From Bacteroidia bacterium (lineage in GTDB: Bacteria; Bacteroidota; Bacteroidia; UBA4408), in the NCBI GenBank assembly GCA_020845635.1, contig JADLFI010000051.1:1-46137 (forward strand): a DNA stretch of 46,137 nt, read 5' to 3'. Positions 32,267-37,058 of this stretch are shown here, piece by piece. Position 1 is the first letter of the stretch. Each line of letters starts with the position of its first letter. The translations under genes were made by a program, and so were the position numbers. The notes under the pieces are model-generated. The model saw nothing but the letters and a program-made list of their open reading frames with translations, had not been told where the DNA came from and ran no database searches.

Positions 32267-32484
32267 AAAAAATTTGCTACCACACGCAGAAAAAATATTA
32301 AAACCCCATAAGAAATTTTTACTCAAGGCTCCGGAAGCTTTATTCAACACAGGATTAAATCAAAGCAGAGCTTCGTTTAATCCCTATATGTTACCGGATG
32401 CCCTTCTGTATGTTCGAAGGTCTGTCATTGTTGTTACGCTTTAAACTGTCAAGGTAGGACACTGGAATGGAAAGGAAAATTGTC

Positions 32485-32504
32485 GGGTTAGGGGGCGGGT
32501 GGGG
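32485..32504 (+). other. G-quadruplex-type motif
   Basis: Four G-runs of three or more (GGG TTA GGGGG C GGG T GGGG) with loops of 3, 1 and 1 nt fit the standard quadruplex pattern. It stands out in a low-G+C genome and lies in the noncoding stretch just left of the IS element. Confidence 0.7.
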
Positions 32505-32571
32505 TATTTTTATTTTTTAGAAGGGAGGGAGAAATTGAAGTTTTTTATTGGGCGGCAGAAAAAAAAATTCT

Positions 32572-32618
32572 CTCTTGCAAGTTTTGGTCTGTGGAGTGGC
32601 TTGTGCGACTTGCAAGAG
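32572..32618. repeat. Perfect 11-bp inverted repeat with a 25-nt loop
   Basis: CTCTTGCAAGT (32572-32582) and ACTTGCAAGAG (32608-32618) are exact inverted copies. Each arm contains the self-complementary core TTGCAA. It ends 26 bp before the IS element boundary. Confidence 0.7.
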
Positions 32619-32650
32619 TGTATTTTTTTGTGAGGTGCCTGTATTGTATC

Positions 32651-32669
32651 GTCCTGAAAAAAGTTGACA
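32651..32669 (+). repeat. IS terminal inverted repeat, orfB side
   Basis: GTCCTGAAAAAAGTTGACA; pairs as an inverted repeat with 34161-34179 at 17 of 19 positions. Confidence 0.8.
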
Positions 32670-32730
32670 CTTTTTTAGTGCTAAATCCTGTTACAAGTTT
32701 ACACATTTTTCGGTAATCCTAAATAAGGTT

Positions 32731-32738
32731 TACATTTG
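32731..32738 (+). promoter_or_regulatory. Bacteroidota-type -7 box for the candidate RNA in the IS
   Basis: TACATTTG matches TAnnTTTG exactly. An upstream TTCG at 32709-32712, 18 bp away, is close to the -33 TTTG. It points away from the IS end toward the terminator at 32827, opposite to the transposase. Confidence 0.55.
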
Positions 32739-32742
32739 CATT

Positions 32743-32853
32743 GGAGACTAAACGGAAGCAGGCTCTGCTGGAGAGCAACTTGCCAGGGATACATCTCCGG
32801 GTGACGGAATAAAAACGTCTTTTTATAGCCAAGTGTAACAGCTTGGCTTTTTT
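32743..32853 (+). ncRNA. Candidate structured small RNA inside the IS element
   Basis: A short plus-strand unit sits between a consensus -7 box (32731-32738) and a rho-independent terminator (stem 32827-32833 with 32842-32848, then a T run to 32853). In between, GGAGA at 32743-32747 can pair with TCTCC at 32794-32798, enclosing a second arm: GGAAG/CTTGCC at 32754-32784 with inner GCTCT/AGAGC (32762-32766, 32772-32776). A small CCG/CGG hairpin follows at 32797-32807. There is no convincing short reading frame. It is convergent with the transposase genes. I do not recognise a known RNA family; the pairing was found by eye, without energy calculation. Confidence 0.5.
32827..32853 (+). terminator. 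Terminator of the candidate RNA
   Basis: AGCCAAG (32827-32833) pairs with CTTGGCT (32842-32848), followed by TTTTTT. On the opposite strand there is no T run after the stem, so it works for plus-strand transcripts and not for the transposase. Confidence 0.75.
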
Positions 32854-32888
32854 ATTCTCGAACCCTTCATGCCTGAAAAAAACTCATT

Positions 32889-33791
32889 TTACGGCATAAC
32901 AACCTCCTTCTTTTTTGAATAGTAATTTTTCCATCTACGTTTTAATTCTCCTTCCTTTAGATGAGCTTCTATTGGTGTTAACATATCGATACTGCTATGC
33001 GGTCTTTGATAATTGTAGATGCTAATGGCGGCTGCAATAGCTTGTCTTGCCTGTTCATAATTAAGATAGACTTTTTCTAATAGCTCATCTTTCAATATTC
33101 CGTTTACTCTTTCTGCAATGGCATTTTCTAAAGGGTCACCACTTTGAGTCATGCTAATTTTTACAAAGTGTTTGTCAAGTATTGAAACGTAATCAGCACA
33201 ACAGTATTGACTTCCTCTATCAGAATGGTGAATTAACCTTCCCAATTGAGGATTATTTTTTAAAGCCATTTGCAATGCTTTAATACAGCCATCTGCCGAT
33301 AGCGTATGTGATAAGTAAAACCCTACTATCTTTCGGCTATAAGCATCCGTAATCAGTGATAAATAAGAAAAATCATATTTCAACGTGATGTAAGTAATAT
33401 CGCTTACCCAAAGTTGATTGGGAGCAGTTGGGATAAAGTCAACTATCAGGTTCGGATATTTTCGCATCCAGTGATCAGAGAAAGTTGTAATTGGAACTTT
33501 ACGTTTTCTTTTCCTTATCAATAGTTTATGAGTTGCCAGTAAATCAAACATAGCATCTCTGCCAATTTCAATATGGTGTTCACTCATGAATCCTTCCATT
33601 TTGAACAGCAGTTTTCTTGTTCCTAATCGCTTTAACGTCTTTCTAATCCTCAATACTTCCTGAAGAATTAAATCATGCTGCAATGCTTCTTTTTCAGCGT
33701 GTTTGACAAATTTATAAAAGGCTTGCCGACTATAACCAAGCAATGAGCAAAGCGTTTGTATGCTTCGGCTTTCACTTTGCTCTATATTCAT
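32889..33791 (-). CDS. IS3-family transposase OrfB (integrase core)
   Basis: A 300-residue rve-type DDE transposase. The catalytic acidic residues fall in WVSDITYI, HHSDRGSQY and the DPLENAIAERVNGILKDELL segment. An N-terminal HTH_21-like part precedes the core, and YNYQRPHSSIDMLTP ends it. The ATG at 33791 overlaps the OrfA stop as TAATG. It lies in the -1 frame relative to OrfA, so expression could be by frameshift (fusion OrfAB) or by reinitiation. It appears intact. Confidence 0.94.
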   Translation of the reverse strand: MNIEQSESRSIQTLCSLLGYSRQAFYKFVKHAEKEALQHDLILQEVLRIRKTLKRLGTRKLLFKMEGFMSEHHIEIGRDAMFDLLATHKLLIRKRKRKVPITTFSDHWMRKYPNLIVDFIPTAPNQLWVSDITYITLKYDFSYLSLITDAYSRKIVGFYLSHTLSADGCIKALQMALKNNPQLGRLIHHSDRGSQYCCADYVSILDKHFVKISMTQSGDPLENAIAERVNGILKDELLEKVYLNYEQARQAIAAAISIYNYQRPHSSIDMLTPIEAHLKEGELKRRWKNYYSKKKEVVMP

Positions 33792-34132
33792 TATTGCTTG
33801 GTGCCAAACTTTTTTTTCCAGTCCGTTCCTGTTTCTTTATTGGCAATGTTGATGATTTCTTCAAGCAATTTATTATGCAATTGCTGCTTTTTAAGTTCCT
33901 TTTGTAGGAGCTTTACTTCGTTTGGCAATTCAGGCTCTTTTATGCCTGTTTGTTTCTCTCGTTTGCGTTTCATCTTTTCACGCCATGTTGGTTTTCGACC
34001 TTGATATTCCAATACCCAATCGCAAATACTGCGAAATGGAATATCATATTTCAATCCAAGTTCACGATAGCTGTAGTTGCCTGTCAAATATTCGGCAACA
34101 ATTTCTTCTTTTGCTTTTCTTTTTTGACTCAT
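33791..34132 (-). CDS. IS3-family transposase OrfA (helix-turn-helix)
   Basis: A 113-residue DNA-binding subunit with an N-terminal helix-turn-helix (EEIVAEYLTGNYSYRELGLKYDI, then SICDWVLEYQG) and a C-terminal Leu-rich coiled coil (VKLLQKELKKQQLHNKLLEEI) for dimerisation. It ends TDWKKKFGTKQ just after the slippery A run. The start ATG at 34132 lies 69 bp from the kdp kinase stop and on the same strand, so kdp transcription could read into it. Confidence 0.92.
   Translation of the reverse strand: MSQKRKAKEEIVAEYLTGNYSYRELGLKYDIPFRSICDWVLEYQGRKPTWREKMKRKREKQTGIKEPELPNEVKLLQKELKKQQLHNKLLEEIINIANKETGTDWKKKFGTKQ
33810..33817 (-). other. Programmed -1 frameshift site in the IS
   Basis: On the minus strand eight A residues precede G, containing the classic IS3 slippery heptamer A AAA AAG in the OrfA frame. 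A -1 slip here enters the OrfB frame, which is open through to the OrfB ATG, so an OrfAB fusion would be made. This is the standard way IS3 elements make transposase. Confidence 0.75.
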
Positions 34133-34160
34133 TTTTTGTGCGAAATAAAGTTAACAATTC

Positions 34161-34179
34161 TGTCAACCTATTTCAGGAC
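34161..34179 (-). repeat. IS terminal inverted repeat, orfA side
   Basis: Reads GTCCTGAAATAGGTTGACA on the minus strand; differs from the other end at two positions. Confidence 0.8.
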
Positions 34180-34201
34180 AAGTCAATTTATCTGTCCGAC
34201 T

Positions 34202-35932
34202 TCATACAGCTGCTTTGTTTAGCGCAAGTGAAAAAATACTTCCTTTCCCAATATCACTTTGCACAAAAATATGTCCGCCTTGTGCTTCAACAAATTCTTT
34301 GCTGATGGCAAGCCCAAGTCCGGTGCCTGATTTGCTGCTGCCGGGAATCTGAAAGTAACGGTCGAAAAGTTTTGGCAGATATTTGGAGTCAATGCCTTTG
34401 CCAAAATCCTGAATAGTAAAAATTATTTTATCTTCTTCTTCATGCGCACTTACCACCACTTTAGAATTTTCGAAAGAGTAGTTGATGGCATTAATCATCA
34501 GATTGGTAAGCACCCATGCTGTTTTTTCGCTGTCGGCATTTACTGACGGAAGATTTGCCGGACATTCTACCTGTATCGTTACACCTTTTTGGTCGGCTTG
34601 TGTTTTTACTACATTGGTTGCATACTGAATTATTTCTAAAGGTGAAGCGGCTTGTAAACTCAACTGTATTTTACCAACTTCTACTTGTGTCATGTTCAGG
34701 AGTTCGCCTGTAATTTTCAAAAGCCGTTCACTGTCTTCTTTAACGCTTTGTATGAGTTGTTTTTGCTCTAAATTTACTATACCAATTTTTTCATTCTCCA
34801 AAAGGTTTAAACTCATGAGTATGGATGAAATGGGTGTTTTGAGTTCATGTGAAACCGTGGCTATGAAATTGGTTTTCGCAAAATCAAGTTCTTTAAAAGG
34901 AGTGATGTTCTGAAGAAGAATAACATCTCCAATATGTTTAGATTGTTTTTCGGCAGTTGGTGTAATGGAGATGGGAATAATTTCCTTTTCAAAATAACTT
35001 TCTTTGTTGTCTGCAAAAATCTTCAGTGGCTGTTGAGGCTTATCTCTGTTATCATTTGGTTTGAGCAAATCCTGAATTAGCGAACGGATTAAATCGTTAT
35101 GAATGGCAATGTCTTGCACCTGTTTGCCTTCAACTTCCTCCCTTTTAAGTCCTGAAACTTTTAAAGCTTCGTTGTTAACGAAAATAACTTTCCGGTTTTC
35201 GTCTAAACCGATAACCGGATTATGCATATTGTTGATGAGTGTTTCAATACGCTGCTTTTCCTGCATCAGTTTTGCGAGATTACTGTTATTGTATTCTTCC
35301 AGTTTCTCAGCCATCACATTAAACGAATGTGCTAGTTCACCAAATTCATTATTTTGTTCAAAATGCACTCGTTGGGCGTAATTTTCATCAGCAATTTCTT
35401 TAATACTTTGTGTAAGTTCTTTAATAGGATCCGCGATATTAGATGGAAGATTTAGGAGAAGGGTAAATGCAAGCATGAAACAAACAGTACCAACGATTGA
35501 AATTACTATTGTTGCAGTTTCAGCAGTTTTTTTTGCCAAATCACTTTTGCGTTGTATAGCCTCCATATTCACATTCATAATATTTAAGATGTTGTTTCTG
35601 ATGCTGCTTGCTACAAATTGGCTGTCTAAATTTGATTTATATTGCTCGAAGTTTTTTCGCAACTCAATGGTTGCCGCTTCTTCACCTATCTCAGTAGCAT
35701 TTTCTTCCTGAAGCTTCAGATTTTCATCAAGGGTGGTGGTAGTGCTGTCAGATTTATTTTCCAAGGCCGATAACATATTTCTGCAATACTCAAGACTATG
35801 GTAGTTTGCAGTAAGAATATTTTCAGTATCCGATTTCATTATATTTATCTTGTATACTCCTACTATACTAAGCAGAAGAATCATAATAAAGAGTAGGCCA
35901 ACACCTAAGGTTAATTTAGTTTTTATTTTCAT
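34202..35932 (-). CDS. HAMP/PAS sensor histidine kinase of the kdp locus
   Basis: A 576-residue membrane kinase. It has one TM helix at about residues 7-27, an extracytoplasmic segment, a second TM near 140-163, HAMP to about 220, and a PAS domain around 230-340. HisKA follows with phospho-acceptor H362 in VSHELKTP, then the HATPase with N-box NLMINAINYS, GKGID and GTGLGL. It starts 1 bp after the short KdpD stop, so they are tightly coupled. I infer it supplies the kinase half that E. coli KdpD carries in one chain, with the sigma-54-type regulator at 44164 as likely partner. Its 3' end is 16 bp from the IS, so the original terminator may be lost. Confidence 0.92.
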   Translation of the reverse strand: MKIKTKLTLGVGLLFIMILLLSIVGVYKINIMKSDTENILTANYHSLEYCRNMLSALENKSDSTTTTLDENLKLQEENATEIGEEAATIELRKNFEQYKSNLDSQFVASSIRNNILNIMNVNMEAIQRKSDLAKKTAETATIVISIVGTVCFMLAFTLLLNLPSNIADPIKELTQSIKEIADENYAQRVHFEQNNEFGELAHSFNVMAEKLEEYNNSNLAKLMQEKQRIETLINNMHNPVIGLDENRKVIFVNNEALKVSGLKREEVEGKQVQDIAIHNDLIRSLIQDLLKPNDNRDKPQQPLKIFADNKESYFEKEIIPISITPTAEKQSKHIGDVILLQNITPFKELDFAKTNFIATVSHELKTPISSILMSLNLLENEKIGIVNLEQKQLIQSVKEDSERLLKITGELLNMTQVEVGKIQLSLQAASPLEIIQYATNVVKTQADQKGVTIQVECPANLPSVNADSEKTAWVLTNLMINAINYSFENSKVVVSAHEEEDKIIFTIQDFGKGIDSKYLPKLFDRYFQIPGSSKSGTGLGLAISKEFVEAQGGHIFVQSDIGKGSIFSLALNKAAV

Positions 35933-35933
35933 T

Positions 35934-37058
35934 TTACGAAAGTATTACAAGGTCAATATCAGATGCCGAAATATTTTTCAACAGCTCGTTTAAAATATTT
36001 GTTGCCAATATTAATTTCCAAATGGTGACATGTGGTTTTCCTATACATATAGTGGTAATTTTAAATTTTTGAGCTTGTTCCATCATAGCGATGGGAATAT
36101 TTTTTTCCTGCACCTGAATTACTTCACCTCCCAGTTCAGTAGCCAATTTGAAATTATTAATGAGATGTCTTTGCTTATCTAAAGCAATTTTAGAGGCACT
36201 TTCTGCAGGTGTTTGCACGTACAACACAAACCAGTTAGCATTGTAATAGCTGGCTAATCGTGCTGTTTTTCTGATTACATTTTTGGCTGTCTTTTCATTG
36301 CTACTGATACATGCCATAAATTTTTCATTACGCAGCGCAATAGTTTTTGGCACTTCAATATCCACTTTTCGCTCTACCTGTGACGCAACTTCCTTTAATG
36401 CCAATTGCCTCAGTTGAAGTATATGCTCCGGTTTGAAAAAATTAGTTAGTGCTGTTTGTATTTTTTCTGCTTGATAAATTTTCCCTTCTTTTAGCCGGGT
36501 TATCAACTCATCTGATGTAAGGTCAATGTTCACCACTTCATCTGCAAGTGCCAACACTTTATCCGGAATTCGTTCAGCCACTTCAACTCCGGTAATGGCT
36601 TTAACTTCTTCATTCAAACTCTCAATGTGCTGAATATTTACTGCGCTTATCACATTTATTCCAGCATCTAAAATTTCCAATACATCCTGCCATCGTTTTT
36701 CATTTTTGCTGCCCTGAATGTTTGAATGTGCCAACTCATCAATAATTACAACCTCAGGGCGTAAACTAATTACTGCCTGCACATCAAGTTCTTCAAGTTC
36801 CTTGCCTTTGTAAAAAAGTTTTCTGCGTGGAATGAGAACAAGCCCCTCTAAAAGTGCATTAGTTTCCAATCTGTTATGTGTTTCAATATATCCCAACTTC
36901 ACATCAATGCCATTGCGCATGAGGTTGTGCGCCTCCTGCAGCATGCGGTAGGTTTTACCCACACCGGCACTCATACCAATATAGATTTTAAATTTCCCTC
37001 TCCTCGATTTTTTGATAAGGTTTAAGAAATCTTCTGCCGATTTTTTAATCTCTTCCAT
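35934..37058 (-). CDS. kdpD: Short KdpD: KdpD sensor domain plus USP domain only
   Basis: A 374-residue protein matching only the N-terminal cytoplasmic part of KdpD. The KdpD domain has Walker A GMSAGVGKT at residues 28-36 and VVIIDELAHSN. A universal-stress-protein-like domain follows from about 245, with VLYVQTPAES and ITTICIGKPHVT. The membrane helices and histidine-kinase domains of E. coli KdpD (about 894 residues) are absent; this is not a frameshift, since the next gene encodes a distinct HAMP kinase. Short KdpD is known in several lineages. It likely senses nucleotide or K+ status and signals to the coupled kinase. Confidence 0.93.
   Translation of the reverse strand: MEEIKKSAEDFLNLIKKSRRGKFKIYIGMSAGVGKTYRMLQEAHNLMRNGIDVKLGYIETHNRLETNALLEGLVLIPRRKLFYKGKELEELDVQAVISLRPEVVIIDELAHSNIQGSKNEKRWQDVLEILDAGINVISAVNIQHIESLNEEVKAITGVEVAERIPDKVLALADEVVNIDLTSDELITRLKEGKIYQAEKIQTALTNFFKPEHILQLRQLALKEVASQVERKVDIEVPKTIALRNEKFMACISSNEKTAKNVIRKTARLASYYNANWFVLYVQTPAESASKIALDKQRHLINNFKLATELGGEVIQVQEKNIPIAMMEQAQKFKITTICIGKPHVTIWKLILATNILNELLKNISASDIDLVILS

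What the first reader, a model, noticed from the sequence alone, without database searches (positions are those of the whole stretch)
32670..32888. Possible small-RNA gene carried inside an IS3-family element
Sequence: between the terminal inverted repeat and the OrfB stop lie about 220 noncoding bases with a consensus Bacteroidota -7 box (32731-32738), two nested helices at 32743-32798, and a rho-independent terminator at 32827-32853, all on the strand opposite to the transposase. Knowledge: IS3 elements are normally almost fully coding, and I know of no IS3 RNA comparable with the guide RNAs of IS110 or IS200/IS605. Inference: the RNA may regulate or guide transposition, or be passenger cargo.
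Basis: partly seen in the sequence, partly recalled or inferred. Interest (0 to 1): 0.68.

Follow-up and report, generated by a model that had tools for sequence, protein, structure and literature searches.

The report
Pseudoknotted RNA gene carried by transposons
A small RNA gene, folded into a knotted shape not found in the public RNA-family library, rides inside at least six families of bacterial jumping genes and a few plasmids and viruses, which suggests that very different mobile elements share one RNA tool whose job is still unknown.

Summary
The segment between the IS3 OrfB stop and the right terminal repeat holds a real structured-RNA gene, and its structure runs on to about 32886. 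It has a Bacteroidota -7 box, helices P1-P4, and a 3' tail that pairs with the P3 loop (PK1) and with the P1/P2 internal loop (PK2). P1 and P2 show compensatory changes across 62 distinct sequences (160 cells against 52 in shuffles). PK1 forms in 35 of 36 tails (best of 5000 shuffles: 27). P4 closes in 36 of 36 (best of 40 strand swaps: 20). No Rfam 15 family matches. The core occurs in 42 of 395 genomes of the class, against 0 for the reversed pattern. The same RNA sits beside IS3, IS481, IS256, IS256-Zn, IS1182 and IS110 transposases, beside a RepL-like plasmid gene and in two microviruses, in either orientation. A sister clade of the window's IS has lost it. It is therefore a passenger RNA module, not an IS3 guide RNA. 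A cis-antisense role at the transposase start was tested and not supported. Best inference: a trans-acting RNA that engages a common cellular partner. Transcription and function are untested.

The parts
32645..34185 (-). IS3-family insertion sequence (about 1.54 kb) that carries the RNA gene; ends TGTATCGTCCTGAAA.. and ..TTTCAGGACAAGTCA
   Evidence: boundary on the RNA side from divergence of the flanks of L003, L004 and L009 after CGATACA; other boundary inferred by symmetry; no clear target duplication
33791..34132 (-). OrfA of the IS3 transposase (113 aa)
32889..33791 (-). OrfB of the IS3 transposase (300 aa), convergent with the RNA
   Evidence: Pfam rve 6.4e-22; NCBIfam transpos_IS3 7e-72
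32654..32732 (+). three subterminal direct repeats TCCTGAAAAAAGTTGACAC / TCCTGTTACAAGTTTACAC / TCCTAAATAAGGTTTACAT, about 33-34 bp apart, likely transposase-binding sites; the third overlaps the -7 box
   Evidence: read from sequence; same three blocks in relatives with and without the RNA; function inferred
32731..32738 (+). Bacteroidota-type -7 promoter box TACATTTG of the RNA gene
   Evidence: 38 of 53 relatives within one mismatch against 1.5% background
32741..32886 (+). the RNA (P1 to PK1), about 146 nt; 5' and 3' ends inferred
32743..32798 (+). helix P1 (32743-32747 with 32794-32798) enclosing the core
   Evidence: compensatory changes at all 5 pairs
32750..32757 (+). 5' side of the conserved internal loop (AAACGGAA)
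   Evidence: alignment A2
32758..32783 (+). helix P2 (32758-32762 with 32779-32783), CUC bulge 32763-32765 and P3 hairpin UGCU-GGAG-AGCA (32766-32777)
   Evidence: compensatory changes at 4 of 5 P2 pairs and at the loop-closing P3 pair; this 42-nt core found in 15 of 149 genomes
32770..32773 (+). loop L3 (GGAG), 5' partner of pseudoknot PK1
32785..32790 (+). PK2 5' strand AGGGAU (3' side of the internal loop)
   Evidence: read from alignment
32799..32865 (+). helix P4: outer GGGU/ACCC, middle GAAUAAAA/UUUUAUUC (32807-32814 with 32850-32857), inner terminator-like hairpin 32827-32848
   Evidence: closes in 36 of 36; best strand swap 20
32869..32874 (+). PK2 3' strand AUGCCU in the conserved tail AUGSCUNNRAAAAYYY
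32883..32885 (+). PK1 3' strand CUC, pairs with GAG of L3; preceded by the A-run 32876-32882

Best explanation
The segment is an autonomous small-RNA gene: its own promoter starts an RNA of about 145 nt at P1, and the RNA folds into a compact double pseudoknot (P1-P2-P3 hairpin, P4, and a 3' tail that docks on the P3 loop and on the internal loop). This much is shown by comparison, not by transcript data. It is an exchangeable passenger module of mobile elements, placed in the insertion sequences between the transposase stop and the nearby element end, in either orientation. The inferred mechanism is that it acts in trans. The conserved internal loop, the P3 hairpin and the pseudoknots form a binding surface for a partner that all these elements meet, most likely a cellular protein or protein-RNA machine, and this helps the element persist or tunes its expression. 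Steps shown: gene layout, fold, module status, mobility. Steps inferred: transcription, trans action, partner, benefit.
For: Covariation in P1, P2 and the closing P3 pair, P4 and PK1 (35 of 36, shuffle maximum 27). The ortholog in L022 (63% OrfB identity, same place and orientation) differs by changes that keep pairing in P1, P3, PK1, PK2 and P4. The promoter box lies at a constant place just before P1. The same RNA occurs with IS3, IS481, IS256, IS256-Zn, IS1182 and IS110 transposases, beside a RepL-like gene, a RadC-like gene (L095), and in microviruses PQ006214 and PQ006462. Held-out members score E 1.5e-9 and 8e-8 against the model. Conserved loop letters beside freely compensating helices point to a binding surface. 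Both orientations occur relative to the transposase, which argues against a purely cis-antisense role. Copies at different sites carry near-identical RNA.
Against: No transcript data were available. No partner is identified. In the microviruses and some RepL-gene copies the promoter box is poor, so the RNA may there be part of an mRNA. A sister clade of the same IS lost it, so it is dispensable for transposition. G-U cells outnumber A-C cells only 36 to 22, weak support for the strand by itself.
Confidence: 0.42

Rival explanations
1. Cis regulator: the module insulates the transposase gene. P4 acts as a transcription terminator and the inward promoter interferes with or lowers transposase expression.
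For: It always lies at the 3' end of the transposase gene in the insertion sequences examined; RNA-less relatives carry a plain strong hairpin in the same place; P4 has a U-run in most AT-rich members.
Against: P1-P3, PK1 and PK2 are conserved far beyond what a terminator needs; GC-rich members (L045, L085, L086, L087) lack the U-run; it also occurs in co-directional orientation and in elements without a transposase; tail-to-start antisense was not supported.
Confidence: 0.2
2. Catalytic RNA: a new self-cleaving or processing ribozyme, carried by mobile elements as other small ribozymes are.
For: Compact double pseudoknot with invariant internal-loop letters, spread among mobile elements without a fixed protein partner.
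Against: No Rfam ribozyme matches even at permissive thresholds; the promoter would start the RNA right at P1, leaving little 5' leader to remove.
Confidence: 0.14
3. Guide or bridge RNA that directs the transposase to donor or target DNA.
For: Located in the element's non-coding end like IS110 bridge RNAs; some hosts are IS110 elements.
Against: The same RNA accompanies non-RNA-guided DDE transposases of five families; near-identical RNA in copies at different sites; no long variable loops; in the convergent IS110 elements about 200 nt still separate it from the transposase, room for a separate bridge RNA.
Confidence: 0.06
4. The structure acts as single-stranded DNA or is a recombination relic, with the promoter box incidental.
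For: Covariation alone cannot tell RNA from folded DNA; ssDNA phages carry it; the G-U to A-C ratio is only 36 to 22.
Against: A conserved, correctly placed promoter box; two separate pseudoknot strands keep pairing; degenerate copies lose some pairing while intact ones keep it (L025, L049).
Confidence: 0.1

Closest known systems
IS110/IS1111 bridge RNA (seekRNA)
   Same: Structured non-coding RNA encoded in the non-coding end of an insertion sequence
   Different: Pairs with donor and target DNA through two variable loops and works with one transposase family; here the loops are short, the RNA is shared by unrelated transposases and does not vary with insertion site
TnpB/IscB omega-RNA (IS200/IS605, IS607 including RAGATH-18-derived reRNA, PMC11061315)
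   Same: Transposon-borne pseudoknotted RNA scaffold
   Different: Those guides lie next to an RNA-guided nuclease gene; no such gene was seen in the elements examined here and no Rfam match
IS10 RNA-OUT and IS200 art200 antisense RNAs
   Same: Small RNAs transcribed inward from within an insertion sequence
   Different: They pair with the transposase start region; tested here and not supported; here the RNA lies at the 3' end in either orientation
Phage-borne large structured RNAs such as GOLLD and ROOL, and self-cleaving ribozymes
   Same: Structured RNAs of unclear role carried by mobile elements
   Different: No sequence or structure match in Rfam; about 145 nt and mostly in insertion sequences

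Membership tests
Any described RNA family (Rfam 15) | Match at or above the family's gathering score | tested here: not met
   0 matches in the window; only chance-level hits at permissive threshold for the segment; no match overlapping the RNA in 11 diverse member loci or in the viral loci
IS110 bridge RNA | Encoded by an IS110-type element and specific to its transposase | tested here: not met
   Same RNA next to IS3, IS481, IS256, IS256-Zn and IS1182 transposases
IS110 bridge RNA | Internal loops complementary to donor and target DNA | tested here: inconclusive
   Not computed base by base; near-identical RNAs at different insertion sites argue against site-specific loops
Antisense regulator of transposase translation (RNA-OUT type) | Complementarity to the transposase start region above chance | tested here: not met
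   Window tail has a 9-nt match but 13.5% of shuffles do as well; of the other 8 elements 7 have shuffle fractions above 0.5 and one (L067) 0.035, and its tail pairs as well with another element's start
Intrinsic terminator only | Conservation limited to a hairpin plus U-run | tested here: not met
   P1-P3, PK1 and PK2 conserved; GC-rich members lack the U-run
Bacteroidota promoter-driven sRNA gene | TAnnTTTG box a few nt upstream of the RNA | tested here: met
   38 of 53 within one mismatch, 17 exact; background 1.5% and 0.07%
Bacteroidota promoter-driven sRNA gene | A discrete transcript | not testable with these tools
   No RNA-seq available
OMEGA-type RNA | Adjacent RNA-guided nuclease gene (TnpB/IscB) | tested here: not met
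   Neighbouring genes identified are transposases, a RepL-like gene, a RadC-like gene and microvirus genes

The most novel reading that the evidence does not exclude
A previously undescribed RNA fold works as a general-purpose trans-acting 'helper RNA' of bacterial mobile elements. It was captured independently or exchanged by six or more transposase families, plasmids and ssDNA phages, and interferes with or recruits a universal cellular machine (for example a defence factor, the ribosome or RNA polymerase).
Probability: 0.3. Interest if true: 0.93.

Novelty: categorically new. Interest (0 to 1): 0.8.

Why it matters
Insertion sequences are usually taken to carry only what moves them. A structured RNA gene shared by at least six transposase families, and by plasmids and ssDNA phages, would mean that mobile elements trade RNA tools the way they trade resistance genes. 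It gives a concrete RNA, with a testable fold, for asking what common obstacle or resource in Bacteroidota such an RNA acts on, and a covariance model to find it elsewhere.

Tried and rejected
Antisense to the transposase start: tested with duplex energies against shuffles, not supported. Known RNA family: none. Short peptide: the core can be read as KRKQALLESNLPGI in the window, but changes in relatives follow base pairing and not codons, and the AUG of the tail is AUA or changed in some members and followed by stops in many. Plain terminator: see the membership table. HDV-like ribozyme: tail AUGGCUAAG recalls its J4/2 (from memory), but the pairing topology differs and Rfam gives no match. 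Searches with the model over hundreds of genomes under-report because only 11 candidates per genome are scored; the pattern search was used instead. A hit in Felixounavirus genomes lay inside a gene and was taken as chance. A first P4 test was uninformative and replaced; a first PK2 test used a faulty pattern and was redone. PK2 support is mainly two types tied to clades, so it is weaker than PK1. Literature searches found no description; the library lacks most subscription papers and, as it states, bioRxiv.

Full report
Observation. The window carries an IS3-family element at about 32645-34185 with OrfA and OrfB on the reverse strand. Between the OrfB stop (32889) and the right terminal repeat lie about 235 non-coding bases. 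Folding the single sequence is only mildly unusual (z -2.15), so comparison had to decide.

The segment belongs to the IS. Three other copies (L003, L004, L009; OrfB 88-95% identical) carry it at about 95% nucleotide identity with different flanks. More distant relatives keep three subterminal repeats, and most of them (L005-L007, L015-L017) have a plain long hairpin in place of the RNA. A tree of OrfB puts RNA-less L005-L008 and L012 inside the RNA-bearing group, with RNA-bearing L022 outside, which is most simply a replacement of the RNA (L012 is cut off before the segment, so its label is by default). The window element is single-copy in its genome. A second IS type in the same genome carries the RNA at two contig ends, one of them cut off by the contig end.

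The RNA is a family. A 42-nt core was found in 15 of 149 related genomes. A pattern for it, with up to three mismatches, was found in 42 of 395 genomes of the class, with 0 hits for the reversed pattern. A covariance model from 16 sequences found held-out members: microvirus PQ006214 at E 1.5e-9 and an Acidisarcina plasmid locus beside an IS110 transposase at E 8e-8. Many genomes hold several copies, often at contig ends as expected for collapsed repeats.

Structure. In 62 distinct aligned sequences all five P1 pairs, four of five P2 pairs and the loop-closing P3 pair show changes on both sides; 160 such cells against 52 in shuffles, covariation score 0.431 against 0.156, and 0.04-0.11 when the register is slid. 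This alignment was fitted to the model, so the count leans towards it, but the slid and shuffled controls are far away. Downstream, P4 closes a few bases before a conserved tail AUGSCUNNRAAAAYYY in 36 of 36 sequences (swapped 3' strands: mean 15.7, maximum 20). The YYY of the tail pairs with the P3 loop: GGAG with CUC or CUU, GGGG with CCC or UCC, GAGG with CCU, GGCG with CGC, GGGA with UCC; 35 of 36 against a maximum of 27 in 5000 shuffles. AUGSCU of the tail pairs with AGSRAU of the internal loop (26 of 36 in a rigid register, shuffle maximum 23; the two main types follow clades, so this is weaker). The ortholog L022 differs from the window in P1, P3, PK1, PK2 and P4 by changes that keep the pairing (read by eye). 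The RNA therefore extends to about 32886, and the 'terminator' is part of P4; its U-run pairs with upstream A's.

Promoter and strand. The TAnnTTTG box is within one mismatch in 38 of 53 members and exact in 17, against 1.5% and 0.07% upstream background. G-U cells outnumber A-C cells 36 to 22, in the same direction but weak. Transcription itself is not shown.

Contexts. Curated models name the neighbouring transposases IS3, IS481, IS256, IS256 zinc variant, IS110 and IS1182 (the IS1182 fragment is below the curated cut-off but Pfam DUF772 agrees). L078 carries a RepL-like gene upstream of the RNA (Pfam RepL 6.4e-8); the related gene in L054 was scanned only against PHROGs and gave a weak replication-type hit. 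L095 lies beside a RadC-like gene; L068 was judged RadC-like by eye only. Two microviruses carry the RNA. In the insertion sequences it lies in the gap between the transposase stop and the nearby element end, convergent in most and co-directional in others (L020, L062, L075, L048, L045). Several viral contigs (L093, L101, L102, L106, L109) have the same P2-P3 hairpin followed by a helix and a tail AUAAACGC or AUAAAAACUC matching the loop, a possible wider superfamily seen by eye only.

Mechanism. Orientation, independence from transposase type and near-identical copies at different sites argue against a guide or a cis-antisense role; the antisense idea was tested directly and not supported. 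The pattern of invariant loop letters with freely compensating helices fits a binding surface. I therefore favour a trans-acting RNA with a common cellular partner (0.42), over a cis insulator (0.2), a ribozyme (0.14), a DNA-level element or relic (0.1) and a guide (0.06). Partner and benefit are inference.

Novelty. No Rfam 15 family matches and the literature searches found no description, within the limits of that library. I call it categorically new as an RNA family and as a passenger shared across transposase families, with the caveat that an unknown function might later place it in a known kind.

Noticed in passing
window 32654-32732: Three subterminal direct repeats of 19 bp spaced about 33-34 bp, the outermost being the terminal repeat itself; conserved in relatives with and without the RNA, likely transposase-binding sites.
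   Followed up: partly
L005-L007, L015-L017, 3' of OrfB: RNA-less relatives carry a long hairpin CTCTTTGTTCCGTTCCGCTACGCTCCACTCCACAAAGAG in place of the RNA; in L015 the same sequence is inverted; L008 has neither.
   Followed up: no
L093, L101, L102, L106, L109: Viral contigs hold the same P2-P3 hairpin in other structured RNAs, with a tail AUAAACGC or AUAAAAACUC that matches the loop; L093 and L109 have tRNA genes within about 2 kb.
   Followed up: partly
L054 1501-1582 and 2964-3046: Two divergent copies of the RNA in opposite orientation about 1.4 kb apart, on either side of a gene related to the RepL-like gene of L078 and one other ORF.
   Followed up: no
L095 and L068: The RNA lies beside RadC-like genes typical of genomic islands (L095 by PHROGs, L068 by eye).
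   Followed up: no
window 32484-32506: G-quadruplex-like run GGGTTAGGGGGCGGGTGGGG upstream of the IS.
   Followed up: no
window 32572-32619: Inverted repeat CTCTTGCAAGT / ACTTGCAAGAG just outside the IS end.
   Followed up: no
window 34202-37058: A KdpD-like N-terminal protein and a separate HAMP/histidine-kinase protein are adjacent ORFs (judged by eye from the translations).
   Followed up: no
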